The position numbers were made by a program, and so were the translations under genes. A stretch of DNA of 64,000 nt from Cristatella mucedo. Taxonomy: Eukaryota; Bryozoa; Phylactolaemata; Cristatellidae. The stretch covers positions 559,501 through 623,500 of the forward strand of contig WPIO01000023.1 of the NCBI GenBank assembly GCA_009760855.2. Reading direction: 5' to 3'. The notes below the pieces were generated by a model that saw only the letters and a list, made by a program, of their open reading frames with translations, ran no database searches and was not told where the DNA came from. Positions 19,301 to 60,140 of this stretch are shown here, in pieces (within the stretch, counting starts at the first letter, position 1; each line of letters begins with the position of its first letter).

Positions 19301-22300
19301 ATTCGATCCTGGACGGAAGCAAATTTTCTTAAATGATAAAACCGATCGCCTACTCATAGGACACTTCAGGCATAGGCTGGTAGATTTCGCTCTTGTAATT
19401 CGTGAAGCTTCAGTGCAACCGTCATCGTGTGCTCGGAATTTAGCTGTCCTCTTTGACAATTACTTAACGTGTGAAAGCTTCATTAAGAATCCACTTAAAC
19501 AGCTAGCCATCAAGTTCAATCTGTCTAAGACTAGAGACTGTCTATTATGACAGCTGGCTACACATCTTACTAGCTCCCTGGTTATGTCAAGGTTGCAATA
19601 CTATAATTAAGGTTTGGCCAGGCTACTAAAAAATGTCATTAAGCCTCTTCAGCTGGTGATGAATATGGCTGCAAGCTTAGTAAAAAAAAATCCCTTGGGC
19701 TCAGCCATGTGTCTTGTTTGCTGAAGAAGCTTCGGTGGCTCACAGTCGTTCAAGAGATACATGGCAAAAATCCTTGCTCTGGTCACAAGGCTTGCCATAG
19801 CCAGGCTACTTCATGCATAGCTGAACCGTTGCACCAGCTTCAGCCTCCTGGTGCCACCAGGTCCCTATGAAAAATAAATTAGCTGTTCCATTCCTTCGCC
19901 TAAAGACAACTGGCGACAGACGCTTTTGCTTCCGAGGTCCTAGACTGTGGAGCTCAACTTCTACAATTTTTACACGACATCTCTCCTTCTGCTGAAAGTG
20001 ACACATACTTTCAAACCGTCTTTCAACTGCTACTCACTTCTTCGACTGCCCTTCTGACTCAGTTATGCTTTCACTTTCTTTTTACATGAGATGAATTCTG
20101 TTGGCTACCGTATGCCCACCAAAAGCTGCGGAGGTTTTGGGTGCGCAAAACAAAACTCTCCTGTGTAACGCCCACTTAGTGCTTGTGGTATTGCGGAATG
20201 ATTACAAAGATACATTATATAAGCAAGTCTGGATAGGCTTGAATTCCCTAACTCATGGGTCTTCTATTAAGTAATGTTTGACCGACTAGGTATACAGGAG
20301 ACTATGATAAGTGATTACTTACATAAGTGTTTGTCAACAAAAAGACACACAACCCCAAATTTAAGCCAGAACTGCAATAGCCAACAGTATGTCAGACTTG
20401 ATACACATAATCGATGATCATTCAAGCCACCATTAAAACAAGTGTTCAAACAGATGCTATGCAGCAAATCCCTTGCACGGATATCAGCTACCTAGGATCA
20501 AACCCCACGACTATTTTACTACTTTAAAGAGGCAACCAAGTTAAAAAATAATCGCAGTAAGAAAACCAGAAGCAAGGAGACATAATAAAGGCTACCTGAA
20601 GGGGCAGCTGCATCTGATGGCAGCTCCCTTGATGAGGCTGAGATAGCTGCTGCAGCTTGAACGTTGTTACTCTCAACAGCCACTGCCGGAGTTGCCGGCT
20701 GTGTAGTCACCAAGTGCATCCCAGCACTTGCTACTGCTGTTGTGCCAATACTGGGCACAATCGTAACTGAAGACATGGGTGCTAGCGACACAGGTGCTGG
20801 TCGGGCTATAAAATAAGAGATCTTATTTGATGCAACTGCATTGCGGACACGCACACTGGCGAAGCATCAGACACTTACTGCTAGGAGACGTCAATGTCAA
20901 TGTAGTGCCAGCTGACTGTACGGCACCTCCCATAGCGGCAACCGTGGCTGCTGAGGCATTGACGATGGAAACAGGTGCTTTGCCAGAAATGCCTTGGGGG
21001 TTAACTACGATTATCTGCTGGCCACCACTTCCGGTGGTTGACGCTGCAGTTGTGCTGGTAGTTAGCCCACGGGGCATGGTTGTCACAATGCGTGCTGGTG
21101 TCCCGCTCATCATGGTGCCAGCACCACCAGGCTTTGGGGCAGCAATAACTATAGTCTGCCGGCCACCAGGAGATGCCGTAACCGTGGCAATCCCAGGTTT
21201 GGCAACAGTTAGTGCACTTGAAGTAATAGTCCTTATCACAGTCGTAACTGGCTTCCCAATAGCCACCTAAACAATATAAACAAAGTAACAGTCATTCAGA
21301 ATGGAAAGATAAACACTAAGATGGCTCACATCACACCTACACATCTTTTTTTTTAATCTAGCTACGACCGATGATAAAAACCGAAGAACAAATGTAAGCT
21401 GCAAGTGACAGAATAGCAATAAGTGTTTGTCTTATGTGTAAAAACACAATGAGCATAACCATTATATTAATAAGCTGTCTTCGGCACCCAAAATGGCATA
21501 TGTTGCAGGCTATTGTTTTAATTTGTCGATTAACATATGCTGAAGTTCTGAGGAAACCTCTAATAATCTCTAATCAACCCTAATATATGTTTCCCCCAGG
21601 AGTAGTCGCCTGTGGAGAAGCTGTACGCAGTATGGCGGTAGCAATAGCCGGAAAGGCCAATCGAACCTGGCCACCAGCACCTGGTGCAGAAAGTATAGTA
21701 GTTCCAGCTATGAAGAGAAAATGTGTTGCTATATATAATTCCTTTATATAGAGCCCCAAGAGAACTTAATCACTTAGAGACTGCTTCACATATGCCACGG
21801 AGATCGAGCCCACGACCTCGGTTATCAAATGCATTCACCTTGACATGTCGGGGCGAGCACCCTAACAGCTGGGCCAAACCAGAGCGGCACTACAGGTAGT
21901 AATCAGATATGGTAAGCTTTCGAATCCTACAGTGGCTCGATGTAAAAAGCACATAACTCAAACGCCGTGGCTGTGAATATTCACTATTCTCATCAAGCAC
22001 AGTAAACAGAGCATACATGTAAGCTTCATGCAACCACACTCGCACAGGCAACCTAGCCTCTACGTGCCTGAGGCTGAACGCTGCTGACACCCAAAATAGT
22101 AGCAGGCGTCATTCCTGATGGGGTAGACGTAATCACAGCAGATGGCTTAGCAGTTCCACCTGCTTGAGTGGCGGTGACTAACTTGACGATCGTGGCACCC
22201 GGAGGCAGCTGCGTCTTATTCTAAAGATAGCAAATAATTACACACAAAGTTAAACAGATACAGTAAGGGCTATGCAGTACAATCTCTTAGTATGCCTCCT

Positions 22301-25300: not shown

Positions 25301-28300
25301 TGTACACGTACCTGCTTACACTGTGCCTGATGTTACCACCAATCATTTGGTAATGCTTTCGATACAGCATTCGTAAAGTGCCTAGAAAGAGATTCAGTTC
25401 TCTGACGGCATTATAGAAATGTATTAATATCTATTATTACTCACCCAATTACCTTCAGTCAATAGTCAAATTCGGAAGAAAGGGTGTCATGATATGGTAG
25501 TGCTTCAGCAGAAATGGCATAGGAGCCCAGCACTGAATACCCGGCACAATGACCTAGGACGACTGTTTAGACCTTCAAAATGTAGGACCTCCAAGAACGA
25601 TGGCATTTCGAGGACTGGATTGTAGTTTCCAGCTCGACACCGATCCCAAGTCAACCGCTGCCTGTTTTTTAACAATTTATAAGAATGCTGTTACCCTCCC
25701 TAGGTGGTTTTAAAGACTGGCAAGTCACTCCATACCTTAAAACACAATCGTGCATTTCCTGGATGAAGTCGAGGGACGGTTATGGCAGCTGGCCCTCTGT
25801 ATTACGACTATTGATGCACTTTATATTTACTTGCAACAAGCTTGGAGTAGCATAGCGCCTAGGTTTGCAAGTGTCTGATCAGTTCCATGCCTGGGCGAGT
25901 ATGACAGGTCCTTTCAAATATGGGATGTGATGTGCAACGTCATACGAGCACAATAAATTAACTAAACATGATAATTGCAAAACATGTTACTTTTCTCATT
26001 TCAAACAGTTTGCATACTTCTGGTTTCCCAAACATTCGATAATTACTAAACATGCCAGTGGGTAGGAGGAAGGAGCCGTCATGATGGCTGCCCCAGCCGT
26101 CCAAATGCTTTTGTGTTTGAGTGCTTATACTTACAGTAGCAACTGATGATGGTCCAGCAGTTATGGTCCTCACCAGCTACAATAAAACAAATTAAAGAAC
26201 ACTTGACAGTTGTCAAAAAAATTTGTTCTGCCTGCCACTGGCACTTTCTAATGACAAATCAGTACATTCAAAGCCATTATCATATCCGACGGCACCTACA
26301 AAAGTAGCAACTTATAAAAAAAAGCTTGGACACAAACAAGCAATGAAACTTATTATATCAAATGATACCTCAAGACGGCAAATTTGGCAGAGAGCTTAAA
26401 AGTGCAATCGAGCACAGTGCATGACCGAGGAAATAACAACTGAAAGAGCAGAACTGCATCGCATTAGTAAAAGACTCGAGGAAGCAAAACCTTAAAAAAT
26501 CATAAGAGAACAGGAATATTTAAATTGAAGCCAAAATTAGCTTATAAAGTTAGAATTATATTACGAAGACAGAGCATTGCTAAGTCAAGAAAATCAAACT
26601 AGCAGTACATAAAAAGGAAACTGAAGATGTTTACAAAAAATGCCGTCATAGCTTAGCAATCGCTTAATTGAAACCATGAAGACAGCCCTTCATGCTGCTT
26701 CAGAAATGAAAATTACGAGAAACTTTTAAATGCTGACAAAAACTTGACATCTCCAAACAAGCAAATAGCAGAAAATATGATTACTCAAGAAGTCAGGCTA
26801 CTATAAACCAAGAAAAAGTGTAACATTCAATTAAACTGGTCCTCAAACACTGAACCAGCAGGCATAAGCGACACGGCTAACAGAACCCTCAATCTCAAGC
26901 TGAGGCAAGATAGGACCGTCAACAGCACTCTGTTTTGACATTCCCGAATTGGTGAACTCGAGTCACTTTTAGGCCCCTTTATTCTTTGGCTCCAGCCTAT
27001 CTCTAAGATCTACTCCCCTACCAGGCCAATCGTCGTACCACCCACTTTTCGGAATCCACCAGTTTACCAATACCTCGTACAAGCCTCAAATCCTTTGGAG
27101 ACCGTGCATTTAGTTCATATGCTCCCAAAGCCTGGAACTCCCTCCCGACTTGCGTCAGAAATCCCCTGACTTGACCACATTTAAAAAGAACTTAGAAACG
27201 CCTATTTAGGACAGCCTTTAGTGGGTCCCTGAGATTCGTCCTTCATGTGCTTATGCGTGCTGACACTGTGCATGCTGCCACTAACCACATTTGCATGCTG
27301 ACCCTGTGCATGTCACCCCTAACCATGTTATTCATGTTGTTTATCAAGCATGATATTACCCGTCATTCAATCGTGTTTCCCTTGCAGCAAATGTAAAGCA
27401 TCTAGAAAGAGATGGAGTTCTCTGAGGGTGCTTTATCAAGTGTATTATTATTACTATTATTAGTCGAATAAAGCTGCTTAGCAGTACCCTCATCAATTTC
27501 GTCGTACACTAACAGAACGTCTATTCGGCGGTTGAGGTAGCGACTGGCACCGAGTTTCGACTTCACTTTGTTGTACATCCTCCATTTATTGGAATGTAAA
27601 AAGCAGACGTGTTAGCATCAGGCATCTGCAGTTAGTCCTAAATATGGGCACCAGGCTAATTTTTAAAATATGTAGTCCAACATATGAAAGAGATCTTAGT
27701 TAGCTCCGGTCCAACAGCAGGTAAATAAGCTAATGTCAACAGCAGTTAAGAAGTTCTTGCTCTGACTCAGAATGCCTGAAACGCCTCAATTTTTCGATAA
27801 CTAGCAGGAATGCTACGATAATACTTGCCCCTTCGGACACTGAGGTCCTTTGATAACTATTAATCGGATCTCTTTCATTTGCTCACACAACATTGTCACA
27901 AAATGGCTTTGCTCTGCGGTTCCACAATATGAAACTTACTTCCACGACTCCAGCGCAAGAAACCGACTAATCCTCCTAGCTTAAGATGCAACGCAAACAC
28001 AGACTGAAACTGCTCCAAAAATAAAGTAAAAGCCACCCATACTTACACCGGCACCCTGCTGGCCAGTGATAACCTTTACGGGTTGCCGTGGATTGCCAGT
28101 GGCATGAATTAACCTTGTCTGAGGTTGCAGGGGCTGCTGGAGAAGCGCAGTACCAGTTTTGGTGGTCGATAAGGCATTGGCAGGTGATGGTGATGCTGCA
28201 GAAATTCCAGGTACAGTGCTGGTACTACCTGAGGCTGACGATGACACATTTGTAGCTTGCGTGACATCATAATTTTGAACCTGAAGGATGTATGCGTCAG

Positions 28301-31300
28301 CCGTAGGCACAGCAGACCATGTCAGCTCCAGTGAGGTCGTGCTTGCTCTCACGAGCTGCACACGGCCAGGTGCAGGTGGCTTCTCTGCAGTGTCAGAAAT
28401 GTAGCAAACCATGAGCACATGCTTAAGTAGAAGTTTATGTAAAAGTTTAAAGCACAGTTTATGTAAACACAAGTTTCTCTACTTAAGTGTTAGCATAGTA
28501 AGTTCAGCACACAAGGAGTATGCCAACCGCATGTGCAATCTGGTGTGATGAGCACTGGATATAAACATGTCTCCATAATACAGGTAGACGGCTGGCTACA
28601 CTGTCACCGAGATAAGTACACCTGAAGCTCGGAATCATCACTTACACGCAGGTGCAAAAGAACTTTTGCAGTGTGACCGCAGGTGCTGTGACGGCCATTC
28701 TGTTCGCATAATAAAAGGATTTTATATGATGCCATGCACCCAAAAGTTTCGAATAACAAGTAAAAATATTTATTGACAATCCACTAACAATATGTATGCT
28801 GCTGGAATGCATGAATTCAATGTGTTGTTGCTCCACCACGATTCTTAACGACCTCCCTTGTCTGCAAAGGCATCGAGGCCACGAGCTTCCGCATTGACTC
28901 CTCTGTATTCCACAGAGCCCGAATTTTACTAAAAAGATCGGCTGTGCATGTAAGCCAAACACCCTGCCTCGGTCGCCTGTCGGTGTCGTCCCGTGCTCTA
29001 TGGGGTTGAGATCCAGCGACTGACTGGGCCAATGCATTAGCATGACACCGAATTCTTCAAAAAGAGCTTTACTGACTTAGCTGCACCCCTTGAGTCATTA
29101 CCTTGTTGCCCAATATACCCGTCTCCAAGCAGATCGTTTGCATTTTGCATTCTGACTTTCTTGACCACCCCAGTGTGTGTATACGTGTTGGTCCATAATA
29201 CCTTCGATCTGATGCAGAGCTCCAACAGCTTTCTCGGCAAAGCAGCCCCATGCTATCACAGACTTCCACCCGAATTTCACGGTAGGTTGAAGGCAGTCAT
29301 GTCGATAAGCCCCATCTTTCCTTCGGCTAACCCTTATTCGTCGCTTTCCCAAATATTGTAAACTCACTTTAGTCTGTTGAAAAAACAGAACTCCAGTCGT
29401 CTTCTTCCAGAGGGCAGGGTCGTAGACCCATTATAAGTAGTGGTAAAGTCGTAGGGCCCACTATAAGCAGTCTGCCTCATGCTGGCGAGCAGAGGTTTGT
29501 GTTTTGCAACACGCCGCAAGTTGCCACTCTTAGCCAGCCTCCTACGGACCTTATTAATATCGACCAATCCCTGTAGTGCCTGTACATGACTGCGAGGTCT
29601 CGAAGTGTGGCGGTTCAGTTCCAAAGTGCTACCATCTTAATGAGCCAGTCACCCGTGGCATTGATCTTTCGGGGCCAGCACTATTCAGCTGCTCGGGCCA
29701 AAGATCCAGTACCCGAATATTTGTTGAGATTATAGCAAACAGTAAGTTTGCTAATCTCTAGCCTCTGTCCAATTTCACGATTGCTAAGGTCACGTTAATA
29801 ATAACAATAATAATAATGCACTTGATAAAGCGCCCTCAGAACTCAATTTCTTTCTAGGTGCTTTACATTTGCTGCAAAGGGAAACACAATTGAATGGTGA
29901 GTAATATCATGCTTGATAAACAACACGAATAACGTGGTTAGGGGTGACATGCACGTTGATGCAGCACTGTCAACATCCCCTTAACATAGTAACTGCTGTG
30001 TTTACCGCCTGGCAATTCGTCGCTACATGCGACCGACCCAGAAGTTAGGAAGTGGACTGACATAATGCTACGGAGCAGTGCACAGACATACAATGAATGT
30101 TGATGCTATGAATGTTAATAAACCCAAAAAACTTCCACTGCCTTTACAGATAGCGAATCTTCAGCAAAACCGGTCTGGTTTTCAGTGATAAGCATCTGAA
30201 TAAGCCTACTAGGCTGCTCAAGAGAATGCATTGGATAACTCCTGGCCCACCTGAATTTCTTGATGCTCTGTGGCTTTGGTTTGTGATCTGGCAAGCCCGA
30301 ATACTGAAAATTAAAGGGTGTGAGGATTTTTTTGCACCTGAATGTAACTATCTACACAAATCCCCATAATGCGAATGCTAATACGTAATTACGAAAGCTA
30401 GGAAGAACGTTTTTCTTCTCAGATTCCTACGAACCAACAGCAATGCTTTAGCATTCCCTGAGAATAGCAATTTCGGAAGAACAAACTTCTAGTGAACCAC
30501 ACTCGGTGGCTTCAAATATCTGTCTTGATAATATTAAAGCTTACGAGAGGTACATCTACCAAATACAGATCCAGAGGTGCATGCATAAGATGTTATGCTA
30601 ATAAAACTTATTTTAAACGGTTTTTGTTTACATAGCCTTTTCTCAAACAATGCTAAAAAGGTCACTTTCTAAACACTCGAGAAGTATCTGAAACAGAGAT
30701 GATTAGGACAAGAATGTAGAAAATGCACCGAAACAGCACTAGGCTTGACTAGCATTACTCAACAAAAACAATGCTGTGGCATGTCAGCTCACCATACCAC
30801 CAAAAGCAAACCAATAATACACAACTCAATGGATATTTCCGGCAAAGATTGGGGCAAAGAATCGTGTAGAAGGGAACGGCTCATATAAATAAAAATCAAG
30901 ACATCTTTTATGCCCATGCCATTGGATATACTGTATCAGTTGTAGGCAGCTATAACTATAGAAATAAAATTAAAAATATTGCTTATACTGGAGACACCGA
31001 ATAGCTAGTTGACATCACAGGCCACAGAATCGATGCAGTTGGCATCCCGACTATAGTGGCTACGAAGGAAAATGGATAGACAAGCCGCGAGGGGAAGACA
31101 GACCTAGCTCATCTAAATAACACAGAATCAAAAATTGAAGTTAAAAATAGAACCAAGCTAATAGCAACATCGGCAAAATGATACACAGATACCGCCTATC
31201 CAAAAAATGCATGTCATCCCCAAATCCTACGAACACGACCACATTAACATGCAATGTCAGTGTCATCAGTATGAAAAAGAAAGCCGGGATTGCGAGTGTA

Positions 31301-34300: not shown

Positions 34301-37300
34301 AACAAACATGAAACAGAACCCAAGCTTCCACAAAGATACAAGGTGTAGCCATATGAGTCACTGTCAAAGTACAAGTAAGGGTCAGCTGATTCAACACCCT
34401 CGTTTGTAAAGCCACAAAATAGCCTTCACCTAGCTATCAACACTGCTTGCACTAGGCAATAAAGGATCGTTCATCCACGATCTCGGTCGTGAAGACCTTA
34501 CCCCCCCCCAGCTAAGACCTATGGGTACCTAACAGTAATAGAATGTGATATGCCCTCTGCCCAACCAGATAAGCACTTAATGAGCATCTTCGATGTAAAC
34601 TGGGTAATTTTATGGGTTGCACAATAGGTCATAGGTTACAATACCGGAAACTTAATAATTATAAAGGGCGTTCTGCTTGTTTTACTCTATCTTAACCAGC
34701 CAGAATGCATCAATTCAAGATTGCTATGCACGACAATGACTAGCTTACCTAACTATCTTCTGTGAGCTTTCCACACTACCCTGCTGATTCCATACCCACC
34801 CTACTAATCTTCACTGTCTTGCATCTTAAGTGCTTTAATTTAGTATCTACGTGTTAAGATTGTAACGAGTTCCACAACTCACCAATCTGAGAGCTCAAAG
34901 AATTTCCATTGCCTGCTAAAAGCAAGGTGATAGCCATCAAGGCTCTTCAGCTGCTTTATAAAAGGGGCAGTTGGATCAACTGACCTTTAATTTAATTTAA
35001 TTTGAAAATACGCCAGTGATGCATTTCACGGCATTCGGATTTTCGAGTTGGGATTTTAAAACCATTACCAGCAGACATCTAAAGGACATGGTGCCTTCCA
35101 AACATGCTGTCAAACCTGCTCCATGTATAAGCAACGGCATAACTATCAATGGCCTTGGTGGACAAATAGTTCAAGTCGCTCGACCTGCTATCAAGAAACA
35201 AGTTCAAGCTCTAGTTTAGCTCACTGAAATTTTGGAACTCTGGTCTCTCCTTAGCCATCGGGCTCGGTATTTTCAAGCTCCTTTAGTTGCTGCACTAGAT
35301 ATGGCATAGCCTACTGCCCCCTCAGCGACAGCAGTTACTGAGTCTTAGTGCAGGGATAAGGTGCTAGCACTTCACGATCCAAGTAGTGAGTTCAAGTTCT
35401 GAAGGCAGCCATTTCTATTGCCTGGTGCAAGCAGGAGTGATAGCTCTTTTAAGAAGGCTCTTTAGTTGCTACATAAACGTTAAGCTGTTAAATCAACTGG
35501 CTCACTTTTTTTTGTTACTGCATACTAGTCCCATCTTCCATCTTGACTACGAGTATTAATTAAGTTGCAACGAGTCATGACTATCACCAGCGATATGGCA
35601 CAGCAGTCTGAAGCAGGCACAAAAAGGAATTTTGAAAATACAACAATGCAGACCTGGGAATATTAAGAGCAAAACTGATTTTACCTGAACTGGGATCAAA
35701 GATGCAACATTGCGAACACAAAAAATGTTACAAGTCGAGTTGCAGAAAAAGCTTGTTTTTGTAATTGTTTTAACACAATTAAATGTTTCCCATGAGCCCA
35801 TAGTATATGTGGAAGGGTAGCTCACAGCATTCTTAGCAATCCAGTAAGTTATTGGCTGTGACTCGGTTATCTGGTGTTCATTATTGGCACTACTCCAAAG
35901 GCCTGGCAGCCGTTCTTTTCCTGTCTAGCAAAGCTTACTGCTCTACCAAAAGTTGATTTCCAAGATCGTTGGTCCTCTAGATAGCGGGTTCCCCACACCA
36001 CTCAGGCAACTGGTCCCCAAAACCCTATCCGACAGTTGGTCCCAAAATAGCCATACTCAGTTACTGAATGTAGATTGCTAAGCATGCTTCATTCCGAATC
36101 AATCTCTATTCAATGCACATGAATGTAGAATGCTTAAAAAACATTATTGTACACATTGTCACAAATGGACGTTTAAGTAAGATCTGCAAGTGACTGCTCT
36201 TAGCATCCCATTACCTTAGCTACTGTGTATCATAATAATACGACATCTACTCTCCAACTGCCGACTATGGCACATCTTTTTCAGCGGTCCTGAACTGCTA
36301 CTTCTATGCTACTCACTACCTCAACTGCTTTCCTAACTCTGCTATGCTTCCCACTTTCTCTTTGTTGCGTGAGACAAAGTCTGTTGGCTACCGAATGCGT
36401 ACCGAAAGCCGCTTAGGCTGTGAGTGCGCTATACAAAACTCTCCTGCGTAACACCCACATGGTCTTTATGACTTTGTGGAGTTACTGACGGAGATACATT
36501 ACATTACATTAGCAGAGTGCCCTGAGATGACTAAATCTCTTTTTAGGCAAGACATCTTATAGCAAAAATGGAATTAAGCACCACAACTACGACCAAGCTG
36601 AATGGGGGACCAACTGTTCCGAAAAAGTCTACAATGCTGCTATGATATACCACTGGCACGATCAAGTCAAACAGCTGTGCCGTAACGTTGAAAACCAGAT
36701 GTCCCTGCTTCATGGCTGGATGCTCTAAGATCACATGATACTTGACATTGCTTCTGCTTACACTAGACTAAGCATATGGTGCTAAATAATCGTATTCCAT
36801 TCCATTATAATCAAAGTTAATAATGCATCGTCGGTATCGTGGCTATGATCAAAGGTACTATTAACTCGCCATTCTTCCTCCATAACATGGCGCTAAGCTT
36901 CTACTGGGCCATGATAACCGAGGAGGTAAGGTGCTCACTCTTTACGACCAAGGTCGAGGTTCGAATCCTGCAGTTGAGCGACCTTATATTGCCAACTGCA
37001 ATCAGTGGTGATAGCCGATAAGGCTCTTCCGAAGCTATACAAATGAGGCTGTTAAATCAGCTAAGATTTTTCTTTTCTTGCCAGTAAAACTTTTCTTGCC
37101 AGAAGAGTCAGAATATACTAGGTCAGGCAAAGCTCAACCAAGGAAATAGTACCATTGTTCAAGCGGTTGTTACCACAATTCCAACTTAAGATTTAGATCA
37201 GTGGTTCTCAACCTTCCTAATGCCGCGACCCTTTAATACAGTTTCTCGTGTAGAGGCGACCCCCAACAATAAAAGTATTGTGCGCGAAATGTGGAAATGC

Positions 37301-38638
37301 ATGTTTTCCCATGGCCTTAGGCAACCTTGTGAAAGGGTCGTTCGACCCCCAAAGGGGTCGCGACCCACAGGTTAAGAACCGCTGGTTTAGATTGTCACAT
37401 CCTAGAACAAGTCTGACTTAGGAGCAAGCACATTGTCAGTTGGGTAGGTGAATCTGCCGGTTGTGATGTCGTTAAAAACAGGCAAAAATAAAGGGGTTAC
37501 AGGCCCCTGTGGGCTGTAGGGTAGGCATACTCTAAAGGATTGGTCGACTCGGGCAAGCAAGTACGATTGGCAAAATACCATGTAATCCCGACAGCTCCCC
37601 TAGCACAGATGTTCCTCCATTCCCCTTCCAAGCAGACAACCAGACAGCTAGTAGCCACCGATCGACCAACAAGCTAACTCTCTACAAGCAATGGATTAGG
37701 CAGCAGATAGAGAACTTTAGACTAATAGCAGTCTACTGAATAAAATTAGTCGGTGCCAAAACGAACTATATGATTACTAACATTAAAACAGCTAATTCAC
37801 GAGGTAACCTATAGAACAGTAAATGGGACTTTGATTTTTACACTCAGCTTCACTTCCTCTCTGCTCTGTTTTCAATGGAAAACTGCTAGAGTCGGCTAAA
37901 GAAGAACCAGCAAAACCCGACATATATTGTGACGTCACAACATACCATAGGCGAAGGTTATTGCCTCGGGCATGGGAAGGCTAATTAACCCCCAAACTGA
38001 TACACCTTTACTTGAAACCAAACGGAGCTCCCATCTTCTAGCACAAGTAAATTTGGTGTGCTTCAGTCATGTTTACGTTTTCTTAATCACCCACCACTAG
38101 TCATGTTAACAGCTTTGAGGCCTCTAGAAGTTGCTGCTAATGCAGTCCAAATCAGATCAGACACAGCTAGCATGCCTTTAAGCACAAGCCGGAAACATTT
38201 AGCACTACCTATCAATGAGCAAAATCTATATATCACTGAGTAGTGATGAGCCACTCAGCTGTTGGAAAGCTTTAGCACTTCTACAACAGGCACTTATATT
38301 ACATCAGACAACAAGTCGAATGCCACCAGGCCAGCACAAAAGTACCACAAGTAGTGAAATCTCTCTACCCTGGCTCAAACTCATGCACGTTCTTAGCAAA
38401 TATTATTTGCTGGATTGTCTGCTTAAGCTACATAGAGCTAAAAGAACGCCGAGATATGTCCCTACACTAGAAAGACAAAGGATGTATCGTATTGCTCTTG
38501 GGTTAATCCACGACCTTGCAACCATTCTTGATGTCTGTCAAAGCCAGTAACCTATATTGGCAGATGATGGAGACCAGCATTATCTCAATACAGCTACCAT
38601 GCTTGTACTGCATGACAAGCCAGTCACGAGCAAAGGCG

Positions 38639-41990: not shown

Positions 41991-42540
41991 TCGAGCGAAT
42001 GCGGACCGCACGGCATCATATCTGTATGAAGCATTTTTCTATACAGCATTTTCTGTACATAGGTCACTTCATTCTTTGGCTCCAGCCTATCTTATCAGAT
42101 CTACTCCCCCACCAGGCCAAGCATCGTACCACCCGCTTTTCGGAATCCAACAGTCTACCAATACCTCGTACAAACCTCAAATCCTTTGGAGACCGTGCAT
42201 TTAGTTCGTATGCTCCCAAAGCCTGGAACTCCCTCCCGACTTGCGTCACAACATCCCATTTAAAAAGAACTTAAAAACCTATTTAGGACAGCATTTAGTG
42301 GATCCTGTGATTCGTCCTTCACGCGCTTATGCATGCTGACACTGTGCATGCTGCCACTGTGCATGCTGCCACTAACTATATTTGCATGCTGACCCTGTGC
42401 ATGTCACCCCTAACCATGTTATTCATGTTTATCAAACATGATATTACTCGCCATTCAATCGCGCTTCCCTTTGCAGCAAATGTGAAGCGCCTAGAAAGAA
42501 ATTAAGTTCTCTGAGGTCGCTTTATCAAGTGCATTATTAT
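41991..42540 (+). mobile_element. LINE clade 1, 3' copy
   Basis: Reads LSDLLPHQAKHRTTRFSESN, then [20 protein letters not shown] and LPT, the typical C-terminal end of the RT protein. The 3' UTR and tail gcgcctagaaagaaattaag end in an ATT run. It contains a small duplication of cactgtgcatgctgc. Confidence 0.85.
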
Positions 42541-46351: not shown

Positions 46352-46698
46352 TCAGCTGCACACCTTTGTTGTGGCTAACTTTTGACGCTTGGCTGCCGGC
46401 AGAGTTGGAGCGGCTGCACCTCGGGCAGCAGCTGCCGACTCAGTAATGGCGCCGGCCGAAGTCAGACCCAACGAGCCGCCGGTGGGCTGCTGCTCATCGC
46501 TGCCACTGCCGGCTTTCTGCAGCTCCAGCCACTTGTCTCCGAGCGCTTTCGAGAAGTGGTCATCGACGGTCTGTGCAGACCTGGCAGCGCCGTGCCCGGC
46601 AGCGGCCTTCGACCTCTTTGCGCTCTCGTCGCCGACCGGCGAATTCACTTTCCGCCAGGTGGCGCCAAGCGACTTCGCAAAGTGATCGTCGACGGCAT
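46352..46698 (-). CDS. VGLL4: VGLL4-like exon 4 (TDU 2 and TDU 3, stop)
   Basis: Reads DAVDDHFAKSLGATWRKV, a 26-residue linker, then VDDHFSKALGDKWLELQKAG, and ends PAAKRQKLATTKVCS with TGA. Acceptor gtttgcag. Confidence 0.94.
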
Positions 46699-49600
46699 CT
46701 GCAAACGACCATGACCGGTGGGTAAGGCAGCCGAGGCCAGGGCAAGAAGCCAATTTAGAGAGGCCGTAAAATGGCAGCTGCTAGAATGGGGCACGCATGT
46801 GTGCACGCACATGGCGCCGGCGTGCGCATGCCTGGCGAGTGTCAAATGTGCACAACGAGGCTTGCCTGTCAAGTTTGAGCATGTGCACATACAAACCCAT
46901 CCACCCATTCGGCGAGGGGCTGCACCAGCAGCATTAATGCTAACGAGCATCAACTAGCATTACGAGTGGCTAGTGTACAAAGGTTGCATCGGATTCAGGG
47001 CAAAGTGTTAGCTGCTCCCAAACAAACACGGTGAACATTGAGACAACATCAAGGGACACCCCGTGCACCGTGGTGCACCTTATGGCTTAGCTGCCACCCT
47101 AGCGGTCACCAAGGAGCTGAGAAGGAGGGCATTTGCCTCACAATCGCTTGGTTAAATGCTAATGTAATCGTGGCTTCACCACGTGAAGCGATGGGAAGCC
47201 CCATTCCCAAGAGAGTCACAGTACTGGTATGAAATAGTGACACGTCCTGTCACCAGCAGGAGGTGAGCGTAAAATTTTAAACTCCCGAGGCCTTCAGCCG
47301 AAGTGAACTGTACGATGCCATTTGCCGATCACATTGTTTGTGAGCAGACTACCACGTTTTTTGAATTCAGCTCAGACTGCCAAGTAGAGCAATTTATGCC
47401 ATCAGCAAAAGTACCAACTCGAGCAGGGCTTGAACAGATCCATTACCCAAGTTTACCACGACCGATTTATATCACTAACCAATTTACATGCGTCCTTTTA
47501 AGCATATGTAAAGTGCTCTGAAAGATAATTATCCTAGGGTGCAGAAGAAATGTCTTATTGTTATTAATATTAAAATATAATTGTTATTATTATTAATATT
47601 CCAACTGCCGTTTGACAGCGGAAACTTTCGCACGTGACTGCAAGTATCTGATTCCTTGGCAGTGGCTTGCAACTACATCGTGTAGGGTTGTCACGAGAGA
47701 ATCACTCGAGCACCGAGCAAGCGAATATTAGCATTAAGCACTTTGTAGCTGCCGTGAAACGCAAAAGAGGACCCAAGCTTCTTTTAGTTCACAATCAGCA
47801 AAACAAGCTACTGCAGCCTCTCGTGAAGCCCACAGCAGTTGCTGGCAGAAATCTGTTCTTTACGGCTAGCACTTGATTTGCAGTAGAAATCCAATGGACA
47901 TTAATCATCGGCATGGATGCTGTGCAGAAGATCTGCTCAACAGTGTGGACTAGCCTCGCCTTTGCACGATATTGCTGGAGAGCTGCATGCCACCACATTC
48001 TGTGATGTGCCCGAGATGGTTGAGCTCAGCACATGTTGCGTCTGCGATAAGCACTTTTATATCAGACACTTGCTCTTTTTTGAAGCTCTGAAGAGGTTTC
48101 TGATATGCTTTGAAGCTAACTGGTCCAGCACTATGCTCAAGCCTCCAGCCTCTAGCATTGAACGTTACCGAGGGGAAACAATTGTGGCAATGCTCTGGGG
48201 GGGGGGATGGACAAATACGACTGTACACTAGAGTGGCCTAGGCCGGACTGTTCCAAGCCTGTTGCTGAGGCTGGCAAGACAGAGGGCATCATTAAACATG
48301 TAGCATGCAGCAGAAAGCCCAAACAGATGGGAAACTATTAGGTGGTGAGAGCTGCCACGACCTTTAAAGGGCCAGAAAAAGCCAGCCGTGCTGATTTTAG
48401 TTCAGGCAAATGGGTTGATTGAGGGAGGTGGACAATGCCTAACCTCATATCAATCCCGGGAGTATGAGACACTACATTGGAATGTTAATACAGTAGGCTA
48501 GCTAAGCTTGGTTTTCAAGCGAAGGTGGCAGCAGGAAACTAGTTCCCACGAGCTCTTCAGCTGCCCATTTACATTCCACCAAAGGGCAAGCACGATGGAT
48601 CAATACATTCAAAGGCAGCACCCAATGCCAGCTGGCCCACCAGCTTACTTTAAATCATTGTCTGACAGCAGCTCTTGGAAGGGTTGCAATGGGCTGATTC
48701 AAAGAGCATCAAAGCAAGTGTCTTGACAAATTCCGACTCGTCATCCCATTTTTATAGTACAAGGTCACACAAGGACCTAGTGGCCACCCAGTGAATGGTT
48801 TGTGGCTGGCAAAAAAAGACTCGACAGAAACCCCACAATGGTTGAGGTGGAGAGCACACACCAACGAAGGTTAAAACCAAAGCTGTGGCTGGGGCACTCA
48901 GAACAGTGAGCAATGGCTGGCCAGCTAGCTTCCAAGCTGCAGCCGACTTTCAAAGCAGACACTTCGACTCCGATGGCCATCAGCCACAAGGCAGATGTTC
49001 GCAGAAGGACAGCGATGCTCCCTCCAAACAGCTACACGTAATGTATCTCTGTAACTCTACAAAGACTATGTGGGTGTTACACAGGAGACTTGTACAGCAC
49101 ACTCGAAGCTTAAAAAGCTTTCGGTAGCCAACAGACTTCATCTCAAGCAACAAAGAGAAAGTAAGAAGCATAGCTGATTCAGGAGAGTGGTTAAGGTAGC
49201 GAATAGCATGGAAATAGCAGCTCAGGACGGCTGGAAATGCACGGTGCACCATGGTTTTCTGTCAGACAACCGTGTACCCTACGTTGCTTACTTAATAAAC
49301 ATCCCCGTGGACATACGAATGCTCAGGCACATACAGACCAACTACCAACTCGATCATTACTAACAGTACAGGTCCAGTACAGTACAAACAGATCTCTTAT
49401 ATACCGACCTCGCAAATTCGACCAGGTAAGTTCTGGTAACTCCCTCTCTTGACAATGTAGACAAGCAGCATTCAGAAAAATTCTGCCACGAAAATGTTAA
49501 TAGACAAAGGACGAAGTAGCCGGAATTTCCAACCTGAGCTTGTCCTCCCTGTGTGCAGCATGGCGTAACAATGTACACAGATGCGATTGACATCTAGTGG

Positions 49601-52600
49601 TACCACATCGTCAGCAGGCTTTTATGCACTTTTTTTTTACGAATGTTTCCTAACGGAAGCAGGCAGCTATCGATATGCTCGCTCATGCTGACCTCATTTT
49701 TTAAAACCACTTCACTTTGCATGCTCCCAAAATCTGGAAGTCATTACCAACTGAAGTCACAACATCCCACGACGACATCTACACGCTAAAAGCCCACCAG
49801 TCTCTCACAGCACTTGCTCTGTCCGTGTGAACCGTCATTATGTGCAACCAAGTGCTGACACTGTGGCTGCTATAGCTAACCACTTGACATGCTCCATTTC
49901 TAGCATTTCACGCAAAGTACCTAGAAAGAGATTTAGCTCTCCAAGAGTGCTATGCAAATATCTCATTTCTTTTATTGTCATCGACTCGCCACGGCACTAG
50001 TGTAGAGGTACAGTACATGCCACATGACGATGCCACACAGTGCCGGTCCAGCAGGAGCCGGACATACTGTAGCTCGAGGCTAGGTGCATTGTCCTGCTCC
50101 AAAGTGACCTTTCATTAGACGACCACATCAGCTCCACAGTCAAGTCTGCATACTTTCAGATACATAACATTGCTAAAATTCGGATTTGCTTATAGAAGGA
50201 TAGTACATCTAAATTAGTCCATGCACTTGTGACATCCTGTCTTGACTTCTGTAACTCACTGCTTGCTGGTCTACCGGCCTGTGCAATCAGGTGTTCACAG
50301 TTGGTGCAAAACGTTGCAGCTAGGCTTGTTTGTCGTGAGCGCTGCAGTTGCCACTTTACATTACATTACATTTACATTACAGCGTTTCTAGCTGACCTGC
50401 ACTGGCTCCCAGTCAATCATCACATCGACTTCAAGCTTCTGTCACTCATTTTTAGGTCCTATCATTCTCTGGCTCCAACCTACCTATCAGAACAACTCCC
50501 CCACCAGGCAAGGCATCGCACCACCTGCTTATCTGAATCGAATCGTTTAGCCATACCTCGTACAAACCTCAAATCCTTTGGAGACTACGCCTTTAGTTCA
50601 TATGCTCACAAAGCATGGAGTTCACTCCCGACATCCCCTGACTTGACGACATTTAAATAGAAGCTAAAAACGCATCTGTTTATCACTGCATTTAGTGAGT
50701 TCAGGTGATTTTTCCTTTGTGTGCTTATGCATGCTGACACTGCACATGCTGCCCCTAACCATATTTGCATGCTGACCCTATGCATGTCACCTCTAAACCA
50801 TGTTATGCTTGGTGAAATTGAGCATGTTACTAATAACCATTCGATTATGCTTCCTATACAGCATATGTAAAGGGCATAGAAAGAGATTAAGTTCTCTGTG
50901 GGCACTATACAACTATATTTTTCTTAATATTATTACTACCGGGCATGTTCTCAACTGCAAGGGTCCAAGAGACTAATGATCATGCATAGCAGGTCGAAGG
51001 ACAGCGGCTTCATCCCACTCGAACTCTGCCAAATTGAATGCATAATATCAAAAAGCTTGATGTCAATGGCCGAGAAAGCACCAAGCCACTTGGTGATGGG
51101 AGCTTTCATCTCACTGCATTAGGAGATGCAGTCATGAATTTAAGGGCTCGGGCATCCCTTCGAGCCCAATATCCCCAGGACCAAAAAGTACAGTGCTCGA
51201 CCATAATTTGGTTTACAGAGGGCTGTGGAGCCACGCCCAGGCTAATAATGACAGGAAGTGATTAAGAGACATCGGTACTACAGCATAAAATCACCAGCAT
51301 TCTGATGAGGTGGATGGAGCCAGCAGCAGACGTCACACAAGCTCATTTCTATCTATCTATCATTTCTATCTTTCTACTGTGTATCTATTAGCAAAGGCAA
51401 CTTTCTAAGATTGAACATGGCCTAGGGTTTGCTGCTGAGCTACCAATGTAGATAAAACCCAGATGGCAAACAGAGCTTCATCGAACAGCCGTAAATGATT
51501 ATTTAACCATGCTTGGCCGCCTACATTTCTTATTCATTCACACCAACTAGCCAAAGGTTAGGCAAACCAAATATGTACAGCATCAGCAAACCTACAACTG
51601 CACATTACTTTAGCACCGGGATTTAACAGCACACGATGTAACAGCAAAGCAAGCTGCCGCCTACTGCTGCGTTATTATCTATACCAAAGGTCGGCAAACT
51701 CCCTCCTCGAAGCAAGATATGGCCTAGCCTAGTACTCTAGTCCGGCCTACTGCCCCCTAGTAATTTACTGTAGGATCCGGCCTAATTGCATTGTCGCGGT
51801 TTTGTTCCCTTCATTACTGCTGGTTTCAGCTCAAGCTGTTACCCACCAGTGTTTATTTTTAGAACTGATATCAGGCACTTGAATGAAACAGAAGTGCCTG
51901 ACCGGAGAGGGATGATACATGTCTACCCCTATTATTGCCATGCATGTCGCCAAGTCTGTTTCGACTGCTTGTTCGTCTGGTCACGCCCACTCTGCCGGCA
52001 CACTGGGTGTGGTTTGTTCTGGCCTAGTGTGCTTTCTTGACTTCCTAAAATGGCCTACTAGTCCAAAATGTTTGCCGACCCCCGGTGCGCACAATGGGCC
52101 GACCATACGCCCGGTGGCTACTGCTGAGCCGAGGAGCACGGTCGTGCCGTGGGAGCAAAGCTCAGCACAGCTTATGCTGAGGGATCGCTAGAGTGTGCGC
52201 TACAACCCGAGACCAGCACAGCAAAAGCATCGGTTGCCGGTGGCCTGTGAGTCACAGAACAAGGCCCAGCTGGTTCAGTGACCTGAGTGCACGAGTACCC
52301 ATGGCGATGGTCCAGCTAGATGATAAAAGGCCACCAGATCGCTGTGCGACCTTGAACCTAAAAGTGAGCAGTGGGCAGCTAAGGGTGAGAGCTTGTCAGC
52401 AGGCACCACCTACCTGCAGCTCGATTGGGAGCCCTTAATTCGACGGCTGCTCAGGCCAATTAGGTGTCCCCCTTTAGAGTGGCTGGCTGCCTCGAGGCAC
52501 TGATTTGCAGCCACACTAGAGCACAGCTTTGTGCCTCAGATTCCTACATTCGGTGCTTCGGTACCAGAATGAAGCACCACTTCAAGCATGTAGGTTTAGT

Positions 52601-55600
52601 ACACCCCCAATAGTTTTCCACTTTCATGCACAAGGAGCCACAATGCTCAAATGGCACTTGCCCGACAGCTTCTCGACGTTACATGCGCCACGAGTAAGCT
52701 GGGTGCAACTAAAAGGGCACGAGTCAGATGGAGCCACCACTGCAAGGAGCGTCTTGCATTACTTACCCGCCACATGCATTCGATCGGGCGGTGGAGGCAC
52801 CGGAGCCATATAGCTGCTGCCTAGAGATCGCCTGAAGTGTTCCTCGATAGCCGGATCACACGATTCTACAAGGAACAGGAAAGGTGAAAACTCACAGAAC
52901 AAGTGGCTTCGAGTCGAAGGGCTGGCGACGCTTCCCAGAAACACAAGGAGGTCTGAAATCCAAGTCTCCCTGGATCCAGAGTCTGCCACACAGGCAACTG
53001 ACAGCGAGCTTTACGAGACACCAGCCACGAGGCGGTACTCAAAAAGCATATTACGCCGAACCGATTGCCAGACTTGAATTAAGTGCAATCTCGACGCACG
53101 GCACACGACGCCCGACGTCGAGCAGCAGCCCAAACTAAGCTCTGCTGTCAAGCGATGCACTGCTACCAGCAGCGGGATGCCACAATCGAGGCCTAAGACA
53201 CAGTGGGCAGGACGCTGGCCCTGCTTCGAGAGGCACGATTGCAGCTCTGCCTACCTGCCGGCATGTCTTGCCACTGCTTGCTGGCCGACCCTGCGCTCGG
53301 ATTCTTGTCCGACACAGCCATCGCGCTCACCGACGTAAATACCGACGAGCTCGATGACTGCCCGCGCGATGCAGAGGACACGTCGAACACTGCACTGGGC
53401 TTCCTCGACAAATTCAAGGGCTCCTGGTCGAGGGCTACAGCCGAAGCAGATTGGCCGTAGTCGGTCGACCGTGGTAGAGGCAGCGAGGCAGCAAGACTGA
53501 CGCCGTCCACTTTCGTAACGGCAGCGGAGCTGATGGGCGGCAGCACCAGCCGCTTGTCAAATAGCGCCATCCAGCTGAGCCCGGGGCCATCCCCACGGTA
53601 CGTGGCTGCATACGGCGGGAGGCCGGCCGGACCCTGCAGGTCGCCGAGGTCAGCACGCATGGACAGAAGGTGACTGAAAGGAAGCCGACAAAGACGGCGT
53701 GAACCGGCGACCTCGCTGCGCACAGCAAGCACGCAGCACACGGTAGACATGAGCACTTCTTGTGAGAGCTGAACTGCCTAGACAGCTTCTGCTCGAGTAG
53801 CAACTTTTGAAGCTACGTAAAACCGCTTGAAGCATGCGCCGTTGCTCCGCACTGCAAACTGCTGACGGCCAACTCTCGGGGAGTGGGTCAACATGGCACT
53901 AGGCACAAAAAAAAAAGAAGAAAGGAAGAAGGCAAGAATCCCGAGGACTCCCTGCTCGATCTATCAATCGGACAGGAGTCAGAGATGGTGTCTGTACCTG
54001 ACTTTGTATCCTGTAGCCACTAGAGCTCACTGCATGTAGACTCACTTTGCTGAGTCGATACAATACTTCATAAATCTACAGTCTATAACGTGTCATTCCC
54101 AGAAGAACCGGTCATAACGTGTCATTCCCAGAAGAACCGAAGAATCTTCCTGCGTGACGAATGGACGAACTTTCTCGCCTTAATTAATAGGGATCTGGCC
54201 TTAGTGCTTGCTATACCCCGGTCTACCTTGTCGAACAATGTGCTCAAGCAGCCGCTCGCGCTGCTACCTGCGCCAGTGCACCATTGAAGCAAACCAGTGA
54301 CACAAGCTCGTCACCGCCACCGCCCAAACCAAGCTCACAGGGTGAGCCGGTGACACCCTGAGCGCAACCAGACAGCTGCGCAAATAGCCAATGAATGTGC
54401 TGTGGGAAGATCTTGGCTCTACGGCCATTGATGCAACAGCAAGCTGCTAAATTCAGCACACTCTGGACGCCAACCCAGCCAACTCGAATGCCAAGAGCCA
54501 GCTGTGGCGATACACAGTGGCAGCAACATGCTTGGCAATGGGCTTAGTGCTGCTAATGCTGCCGCCAACGCGACCGGCGAGCAGACCTCAAACTATATCG
54601 ACAAGGACCTTTTCCTTTGCAGGATCCAAAAACCAATGACCACATCAGCAAAGCAGGTTGCTTCCCCAAATTCACCTCCATTTGCGCTAGTATGCGGGTC
54701 TGATGGTAACAGCTTACAGGCATGCCGCGAAGGTGCCACTTAGACACTGTCCTCGAAGGCAAAACCAGACTAACCCACACCTATTTGCGTGGAATCGACG
54801 ACGAGACCTCTTACAGCAGTGGCAGCGACAGCAACAGTCTGCATCAGACAGCAGGTGCTGGTGAAAAGAGTTAAGTCAAGGACTACAGCAGCTGGTCTCT
54901 GCTGAAGGCCACCAGGCTGAGCAGACACTCCATTCGAACCAAGCTTTCGGGGCTGTTACAAGCCATCAGAGTTGCAAGCGAATTGCAGACATTCATTAGG
55001 AGGCATAACATAAAAAATGTAGTTAGCTCGCGCACGAGCACACACAGTGAGACACAAACGGCATTCGAGATCAAAGCCATACGAAGCGATATTCTTTTCA
55101 TTTTTACACTTTCAATGAATCACGACTTGGACTTGTATGAGATGACTACCTCGAATATGCAGGACAGCCAGCATGATAAAGAGACTAGCAAACCGTGAAC
55201 ACGGTAAGAGACATTGTTCATTTATCTTAGCACACCTTGTAACCTACTTCAAGACCAACGAGGAGCATCTCCACTTTGCTAAGTTGCCGTTTCGATCGGT
55301 GCGACAAGCTACCGGTCGGACGGTATCAGAGGGAAGGTAGCTTAAAAATGCCTCCTACCGAAAGCACCACTTGCTTAAGAACCCAAGACCGATCGCATAT
55401 AACTGCATGCTTTCTTTCGAATGCTACGGCGGTGCACGGAGGGACGGATCTGTTAAGCAAAGGCCAGCTCGAACAGCCACATTGGCTCTTGCATATTTAC
55501 ACTCCCACTTACTGGCTGCTTACTCGCCAAGCCATGGAAATGAACATAAAGGTGCATGCAATGCAATAGGACAAAGGTGTACAGCAGACAAAAGGATCCA

Positions 55601-57654: not shown

Positions 57655-58219
57655 TTCGAACGTAGGCGCGAAGCAGACAGACCGACATGCCTACTAGTAG
57701 GCAAGCGAAAGCTTGCAAGCTCGACCCTCGGTGGTCGGCAAGACACAGGGCGCGACAGACCAATCGAGGTTAGTATGCAACATAGAGTACTGGACGAGAC
57801 CTATCGCGAGCCAGCTGCTGCGCACGCTGCCCCGACCTAGCATGACAGGCCAGTATACCCCGAGCTTGCAAGCGCTGACGAGAGGCCCCACATAGCGTAA
57901 CAAACGAAGCTCGAGTGCCCTCCTGAAGTGGCAGTGCCACATCTGTGCCTTACATACACAATCCAGCAGCATCAGGCACCGCATGACGATAGGACCAAAC
58001 AGCGTGTGGCCCAATTTCGCAGGGGCTGTCATTCACATGCAAGCCCAATACCATCAGTCAGCAGAAGCCGATCAGCATGGCAAAAAATCGGCATAAGTGA
58101 GTGCTTGCTAAGTTGAGCTGAGCGGCAAGCACACAAAGGATGCGACTCACGCCCATCTCATGCTACATAGGCAGTCGGAACCGCTGCAAAGCGACTGAAC
58201 ACACTGTACTAGCCAACAC

Positions 58220-58740
58220 ACTAGGCATGGTTTTGTCGCTCACTTTTAGGTCTCTTCATTCTATGGCTCCAGCCTATCTTTCAGATATACTACCCCATCA
58301 GGCAAAGCATCGTACCACTCGCTTTTCGGAATCCAACAGTCTAGAAATACCTCGTACAAACCTTAAATCCTTTGGAGACCGTGCATTTAGCTCGTATGCT
58401 CCCACAGCCTGGAACTCCCTCCCGACCTGCATCAGAACATCCCCTGACCTGACCACATTTAAAAGAAACTTAAAAACATACCTATTTAGGACAGCATTTA
58501 GTGGGTCCTTGTGATTCGTCCTCGATGTGCTTATGCGTGCTGACACTGTTCATGCTGCCACTAACCACATTTGCATGCTGACCCAGTGCATGTAACCCCT
58601 AACCATGTTATTCATTTTGTTTGTTTTTCAAGCATGATTTTACTTACTATTCTATTGCGTATCACTTTGCAGCAAATGTAGAGCGCCTAGAAAGAGATTG
58701 TTCTCTGAGGGCGCTTTATCAAGTGCAATATTATTATTAT
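58220..58740 (+). mobile_element. LINE clade 1, 3' copy
   Basis: Open frame reading [60 protein letters not shown] and LPT, to a stop, then the 3' UTR, the tail gcgcctagaaagagattg and an ATT run. One of the best preserved 3' ends. Confidence 0.88.
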
Positions 58741-59488: not shown

Positions 59489-59822
59489 TAGGAGCTGGTG
59501 CAAAAGCAATACACAGGGCCTGTTGTGGTGGCAGCTTTTGATCCCATGTTTTAGCCTAAGGATAAGGTGCTCGAACTTCACCAATCAGGTTGGTTATTGA
59601 ATCCTACAGCACGTAATAATTCATTGCCCTCAGCTGGGCGATGGCAGCTAAGGACTAGGAGCTGGTGCAAAAGCAATACACAGGGCCTGTTGTGGTGGCA
59701 GCTTTTGATCCCATGTTTTAGCCTAAGGATAAGGTGCTCGAACTTCACCAATCAGGTTGGTTATTGAATCCTACAGCACGTAATAATTCATTGCCCTCAG
59801 CTGGGCGATGGCAGCTAAGGAC
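59489..59822 (+). repeat. 167-bp perfect tandem duplication containing a SINE B head
   Basis: Two adjacent units (59489-59655 and 59656-59822) starting taggagctggtgcaaaagca are identical by eye. Each holds a SINE B-like head, ggataaggtgctcgaacttc. Either a very recent duplication or an assembly artefact. Confidence 0.9.
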
Positions 59823-60140
59823 TTTTGCTATGGGCCTGCTGAATCAGTCGAATTTCGTTCGCAACACTGCTCAAGTCCTGAAGCTGTCGCGTGTGTTGAA
59901 AGCATTTCGTGTGAATAATTAGACTATTGCACAGTATGATGTGAGGTGAATACCAAGTGTTGCTCAAATTAGGAGCCCTAATTTAAAGAAAGACATCTTG
60001 ATGATTGCCCAGAGAACAAAACCCAAGTTGGGTTTAAGTTTCACGAGCCCCATTTTGTGCATGTATAGGCAGTGGCCAGACACCGATAGAAGCAATGCAG
60101 GATATGAATGATAAGGGTGGGTGCAAACTGCCTTACTAAA

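What the first reader, a model, noticed from the sequence alone, without database searches (positions are those of the whole stretch)
37199..37384. SPIN-like hAT element with intact ends and target-site duplication
The terminal repeats and the motifs next to them match the Space Invader hAT family, known for repeated horizontal transfer among tetrapods and reported in a few invertebrates. The 8-bp duplication (one mismatch) shows true transposition. If this host is an invertebrate, it adds to that transfer story.
Basis: partly seen in the sequence, partly recalled or inferred. Interest (0 to 1): 0.75.

Follow-up and report, generated by a model that had tools for sequence, protein, structure and literature searches.

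The report
SPIN jumping gene in an invertebrate
A 186-base non-coding jumping gene in this invertebrate genome is one of many copies of what appears to be SPIN, a DNA transposon known for hopping between unrelated animals, and the genome still carries decayed full-length relatives of it.

Summary
Confirmed. Window 37199-37384 is a 186-bp non-coding element with terminal repeats matching 14/16 and an 8-bp target duplication with one mismatch. The 572-Mb genome holds 740 left-end and 448 right-end matches at <=1 mismatch; reversed-pattern controls gave 0.

The consensus of the 40 best copies equals a SPIN_NA/URR1 sequence, recalled from memory and typed before other copies were seen, at 79/81 left-end and 83/83 right-end bases. 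Copies of ~313 bp hold the recalled interior (294/308). Three loci hold ~3-kb forms with interrupted transposase-like frames.

The host is an invertebrate: its mitochondrial COX1 contains AGA/AGG, stops in vertebrates. Species unknown; gene order suggests a spiralian (recalled).

In kind it is ordinary: SPIN is reported from Rhodnius and a SPIN-like hAT from Biomphalaria. New is probably the host, which preserves the family's whole range of forms. No uninterrupted transposase was seen, so the family is probably dead there. Time and direction of transfer were not testable.

The parts
37199..37384 (+). SPIN-type non-autonomous hAT transposon (186 bp; short form, host consensus 187 bp)
   Evidence: 14 of 186 aligned positions differ from the 40-copy consensus
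37199..37214 (+). left terminal inverted repeat CAGTGGTTCTCAACCT
37369..37384 (-). right terminal inverted repeat (reverse complement CAGCGGTTCTTAACCT), 14/16 match to the left one
37191..37198 (.). left target-site duplication ATTTAGAT (central TA)
   Evidence: nnnTAnnn is the target consensus given for TcBuster (PMC3499496, passages)
37385..37392 (.). right target-site duplication GTTTAGAT, 7/8 match
37226..37262 (+). left subterminal CGACCC words (at 37226 and 37257), possible transposase-binding repeats
   Evidence: 6 of the window's 28 CGACCC/GGGTCG words lie in this element; role inferred
37335..37366 (.). right subterminal words GGGTCG (37335, 37355) and CGACCC (37343, 37361)
   Evidence: role inferred
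36912..37071 (+). SINE-like repeat directly upstream, a neighbour and not part of the transposon
   Evidence: related copies at 1606-1740 and elsewhere; a tRNA origin is only my reading, ARAGORN found no tRNA gene in the window

Best explanation
It is an internally deleted (miniature, non-coding) SPIN element of the Buster branch of hAT transposons. A roughly 3-kb autonomous SPIN entered this invertebrate lineage, almost certainly by horizontal transfer. Its transposase cut and pasted DNA carrying SPIN ends into 8-bp sites centred on TA, duplicating the site. Deletion derivatives (about 313 bp and 187 bp) multiplied to the order of 2000 copies. The transposase genes have since decayed, and the window copy is a fossil of that burst. 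Shown: ends, target duplications, high copy number, interior shared with the recalled SPIN, about 3-kb relics with interrupted frames. Inferred: entry by horizontal transfer, mobilisation in trans, end of activity.
For: Terminal repeats and target duplication of the window copy. 740 and 448 end matches genome-wide, controls 0. Consensus equals the recalled SPIN_NA at 79/81 and 83/83 end bases. Of the 10 end positions compared (81 left, 58 right) where the window copy differs from the recalled sequence, the host consensus sides with the recalled one at 8, which validates the recall. A recalled 60-base interior absent from the window copy has 40 matches of 40 scored (63 first-look candidates), best 93%. 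Long-form consensus 294/308. Duplications centred on TA. Forms of about 3 kb: L141 (3288 bp, both ends, flanks 7/8) and L145 (2956 bp, both ends); L144 shows the right end only. They are 82-85% alike over their main blocks, with related frames that carry stops in L141 and L145. Host code.
Against: The mammalian reference was recalled, not fetched. Pfam gave no hAT or BED domain for the four translated pieces of the L141 relic and one piece found no hAT structure, so a Buster-type transposase rests on its position between SPIN ends and on recall. 7 of 40 sampled left ends had no right end within the fetched stretch, and 7 of 28 loci with the interior lacked one of the ends. Outer 8-mers do not match well in L145, L118 (5 mismatches) or L140. 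One block of L144 against L145 is only 77% alike. Horizontal transfer was not tested with a phylogeny or related hosts.
Confidence: 0.93

Rival explanations
1. A different Buster-group miniature family that merely shares terminal repeats and GACCC words with SPIN.
For: Subterminal TGGGTCGCG repeats are reported for the related Buster1 family, and Buster elements share similarity over about 106 bp of their ends (PMC4298943, passages). Pfam did not recognise the transposase pieces.
Against: Identity to the recalled SPIN is 162/164 over the ends and runs on into the interior of the long forms.
Confidence: 0.05
2. Vertebrate DNA contaminating the assembly.
For: The sequence is nearly identical to a (recalled) mammalian element.
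Against: Hundreds of copies on many contigs, several of multi-megabase size, a mitochondrial COX1 that the vertebrate code would cut at 11 codons, and a divergent HCF-1-like exon in the same window.
Confidence: 0.01
3. SPIN was inherited vertically from the animal ancestor rather than transferred.
For: No related host genome was available to test for absence.
Against: Non-coding ends are 98.8% identical to the recalled mammalian sequence, while short copies inside this genome have drifted about 9% at non-CpG sites. Neutral non-coding DNA is not expected to stay so alike since the protostome-deuterostome split (general knowledge).
Confidence: 0.02

Closest known systems
SPIN / SPIN_NA (SPACE INVADERS) of tetrapods (mouse URR1, recalled)
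   Same: Ends, interior, 8-bp TA-centred target duplications, non-autonomous forms of a larger element
   Different: Host is an invertebrate. The host consensus has C at positions 26 and 59 where the recalled form has T; the long form has a 3-bp deletion and a different stretch of about 25 bases before the shared right end
SPIN in Rhodnius prolixus (PMC11614815, passages)
   Same: SPIN in an invertebrate; SPIN_NA_12_RP and SPIN_NA_13_RP are named there
SPIN-like hAT of the snail Biomphalaria glabrata, about 1,000 copies (PMC5440852, passages)
   Same: High copy number in a spiralian; no intact transposases reported there for its DNA elements
Buster1 and Buster2 elements (PMC4298943, passages)
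   Same: Buster branch of hAT, miniature forms by internal deletion, transfers among invertebrates (and bats for Buster2); TGGGTCGCG subterminal repeats in Buster1
   Different: Terminal repeats such as CAGGGCTTCTTAAAC and CAGGGGTGGCCAACCT differ from CAGTGGTTCTCAACC

Membership tests
SPIN (hAT, Buster group) | Terminal inverted repeats CAGYGGTTCTCAACC | tested here: met
   Host consensus CAGTGGTTCTCAACCT / CAGCGGTTCTCAACCT; the SPIN form is recalled
SPIN (hAT, Buster group) | 8-bp target-site duplication with central TA (nnnTAnnn) | tested here: met
   <=1 mismatch in 23 of the 40 best copies and in 23 of 40 sampled left ends, 33 of which have a right end; T and A at positions 4 and 5 of the left duplication in 37 of 40 each; consensus from PMC3499496, passages
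SPIN (hAT, Buster group) | Subterminal and interior sequence of SPIN_NA | tested here: met
   162/164 at the ends, 294/308 for the long form, interior matched in 40 of 40 scored of 63 candidates; reference recalled
SPIN (hAT, Buster group) | Autonomous element of about 3 kb encoding a Buster-type hAT transposase | tested here: inconclusive
   About 3-kb relics with related, interrupted frames; Pfam found no hAT domain in four pieces of L141
SPIN (hAT, Buster group) | Alignment to the curated SPIN consensus (Dfam/Repbase) | not testable with these tools
   Libraries not held; three founding SPIN papers not held
Horizontally transferred element | Cross-phylum identity above neutral expectation | tested here: met
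   98.8% at non-coding ends against about 9% drift among copies within the genome; reference recalled
Horizontally transferred element | Patchy distribution among related hosts | not testable with these tools
   G000 has no relatives in the held genomes

The most novel reading that the evidence does not exclude
The host belongs to a spiralian group in which SPIN has never been reported, and it preserves the whole invasion (autonomous relics, two deletion forms, a datable burst), so it can place an invertebrate lineage inside the tetrapod SPIN transfer network as donor, recipient or intermediary.
Probability: 0.5. Interest if true: 0.55.

Novelty: new member of a known kind. Interest (0 to 1): 0.42.

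Why it matters
SPIN is a textbook case of a transposon crossing between distant animals, and few invertebrate hosts are known. A genome with hundreds of copies, deletion forms and full-length relics gives a datable record of one invasion. It would let the order and route of transfers be tested once the species is named and the tetrapod consensuses are at hand.

Tried and rejected
Contamination and 'terminal repeats only' were tested and rejected. Exact SPIN patterns in viral contigs and genome contigs, and blastn of the window element in phages and plasmids, found nothing, so no outside SPIN copy could be fetched as a reference. The strongest hAT transposase matches in the genome belong to a different, very young hAT; 30 of its loci were checked and none has SPIN ends. 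Pfam on 15 of the window's 28 ORFs of 110 aa or more gave only a Vg_Tdu match below its cut-off. An attempt to name the species by assembly size in papers failed. Searching the joined flanks for an empty copy of the site gave the window's own two flanks and two short matches.

The first divergence figures (3-8%) come from the 40 best matches, including the window copy, and are biased low. The later sample used the first 43 listed perfect left ends minus 3 already held; it is conditioned on a perfect 25-base left end, and those bases were skipped in the estimate. The 17 long copies come mostly from the best matches, and two of them (L120, L136) have the same flanks and are probably one duplicated insertion. 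The total copy number (about 2,600 by Poisson from 740 hits; 2218 first-look candidates) is rough.

Not answered and dropped: nuclear 18S and PF14291.

Full report
Observation. Window 37199-37384 is a 186-bp non-coding element. Its 16-bp ends are inverted repeats matching at 14 of 16 positions, and the flanks ATTTAGAT/GTTTAGAT match at 7 of 8. Such a flank match occurs at 30 of 63,700 window positions with the same spacing. Six of the window's 28 CGACCC/GGGTCG words lie inside it. No other copy lies in the window.

Genome-wide family. The window is G000:C155:559501-623500 of a 572-Mb, 688-contig assembly. The element search scored 40 of 2218 first-look candidates and all 40 matched. The 25-base left end occurs 363+377 times and the 27-base right end 208+240 times at <=1 mismatch; the reversed-pattern controls gave 0. 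The 40 best copies, window copy included, have a 187-bp consensus. Of these, 23 of 40 have flanking 8-mers with <=1 mismatch and 3 of 40 have 6 or more; T stands at position 4 and A at position 5 of the left 8-mer in 37 of 40 each, of the right one in 36 and 33. This fits nnnTAnnn, the target consensus given for TcBuster (PMC3499496, passages). One pair (L021, L030) shares its flanking 8-mers and is 2.6% apart, so probably reflects a duplication of one insertion.

Is it SPIN? The host consensus, computed later, equals it at 79 of 81 left and 83 of 83 right positions; both differences are C in the host and T in the recalled form. Where the window copy departs from the recalled sequence, the host consensus sides with the recalled one at 6 of 8 left and 2 of 2 right positions compared. 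A recalled 60-base interior piece that the window copy lacks has 40 matches of 40 scored, 63 first-look candidates, best 93%. Of 28 loci with this interior, 21 have both ends, and 17 of these measure 302-352 bp; their 313-bp consensus is identical to the recalled long form at 294 of 308 aligned bases, with most mismatches in one stretch just before the shared right end. The recall is therefore tested by the genome itself, but the label 'SPIN' still comes from memory.

Less biased sample. I fetched the first 43 listed perfect left ends, minus 3 already held. 33 of these 40 have a right end; 30 measure 144-200 bp and 3 measure 304-319 bp, and 23 have flanking 8-mers with <=1 mismatch. The 7 without a right end may be truncated or interrupted copies. 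Over 29 short copies the non-CpG divergence from the consensus, skipping the selected first 25 bases, averages 9.3% (range 5.2-18.7%); the 17 long copies average 10.6%. Both forms therefore look similarly old.

Longer relics. Two copies (L134, L137) ran past the deletion breakpoint into shared sequence. Extended, one (L140) is a 919-bp form and the other (L141) is 3288 bp from end to end with flanks matching at 7 of 8. The minus strand of L141 holds transposase-like pieces spread over three frames with many stops. One 104-residue piece of it gave 5 matches of 7 candidates scored, at 4 places; only at L141 itself and at C133 (L144) was the frame open over the match. L145 has both SPIN ends 2956 bp apart but its outer 8-mers do not match; L144 shows a right end only, its left end expected beyond the fetched stretch, with open pieces of 192 and 144 aa in different frames. 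Main DNA blocks of the three are 82-85% alike, one block 77%. Pfam recognised no hAT domain in four pieces of L141. No uninterrupted transposase was seen, but the search covered one piece of the gene only, and introns were not excluded.

Host. In the COX1 of contig C688, read with table 5, there are 7 AGA and 4 AGG codons (Ser), 12 ATA (Met), 15 TGA (Trp) and 2 AAA (Lys). AGA and AGG are stops in the vertebrate code, so the gene cannot be vertebrate. That they fall at conserved Ser, and AAA at conserved Lys, is my reading of a familiar protein, not an alignment. It fits the invertebrate code rather than the tunicate, echinoderm/flatworm or cnidarian codes (recalled tables). The block nad1-nad6-cob-nad4L-nad4-nad5 on one strand (genes named by my reading) is the spiralian arrangement (recalled). 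The window holds an HCF-1-like exon, 28/42 identical to the solved chain, and a VGLL4-like exon. The species remains unknown.

Mechanism. hAT transposases bind terminal and subterminal repeats, excise the element and insert it at 8-bp sites (established for the superfamily). The miniature copies have no coding capacity and must have been moved by the enzyme of a longer element (inferred). The stops in the relics and the divergence of the copies suggest the family is extinct in this genome (inferred).

Comparison with print. In the held library SPIN is reported for Rhodnius (PMC11614815, passages), a SPIN-like hAT of ~1,000 copies for Biomphalaria (PMC5440852, passages), and 385 SPIN elements for the painted turtle (PMC4054807, passages). 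DNA-transposon transfers among vertebrates and invertebrates are put at ~45 to ~15 My (PMC3621081, passage). Searches used were made; the three founding SPIN papers are not held. I make no claim that this host is unreported. Lymnaea as a SPIN host is recalled.

Verdict. The finding is right in observation and in substance. It is probably a new host record for a known element, not a new kind of element.

Noticed in passing
L046-L075 (e.g. L057:1062-3237), genome-wide: A different, very young hAT: 63 of the 138 Dimer_Tnp_hAT matches score E 1.1e-16 or better, 16 of them with open frames of 635-642 aa; the 30 loci fetched are mostly 99% or more identical over about 2.2 kb and lack SPIN ends. It may be active or a recent arrival.
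   Followed up: partly
L044, L045 (contig C688, 21 kb): Mitochondrial contig with a direct repeat (the same ORFs at L045 1015-2463 and 3130-4578) and an inverted copy (L044 2534-3982); the genes I read as nad2 and cox2 lie on the strand opposite to the others.
   Followed up: no
G000:C166:4375626-4376390 and C83:2826-3735: Further COX1 matches with TGA codons outside contig C688, possibly nuclear mitochondrial insertions.
   Followed up: no
window 26963-27160, 42054-42251, 50446-50643, 58240-58437: Four related repeats that I read as LINE 3' ends (ORFs at 50229-50660 and 58140-58514 look like reverse-transcriptase C-termini but have no Pfam match), followed by a GCGCTATACAAAT-type tail.
   Followed up: no
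window 59489-59823: Two 167-bp copies in perfect tandem containing the SINE-like head: a recent duplication or an assembly artefact.
   Followed up: no
window 27981-28472 (-) and 46352-46753 (-): An HCF-1-like exon and a VGLL4-like exon; the SPIN copy lies between them. ORFs at 20519-21266 (-) and 53193-53756 (-) look like further exons of these genes by eye only.
   Followed up: partly
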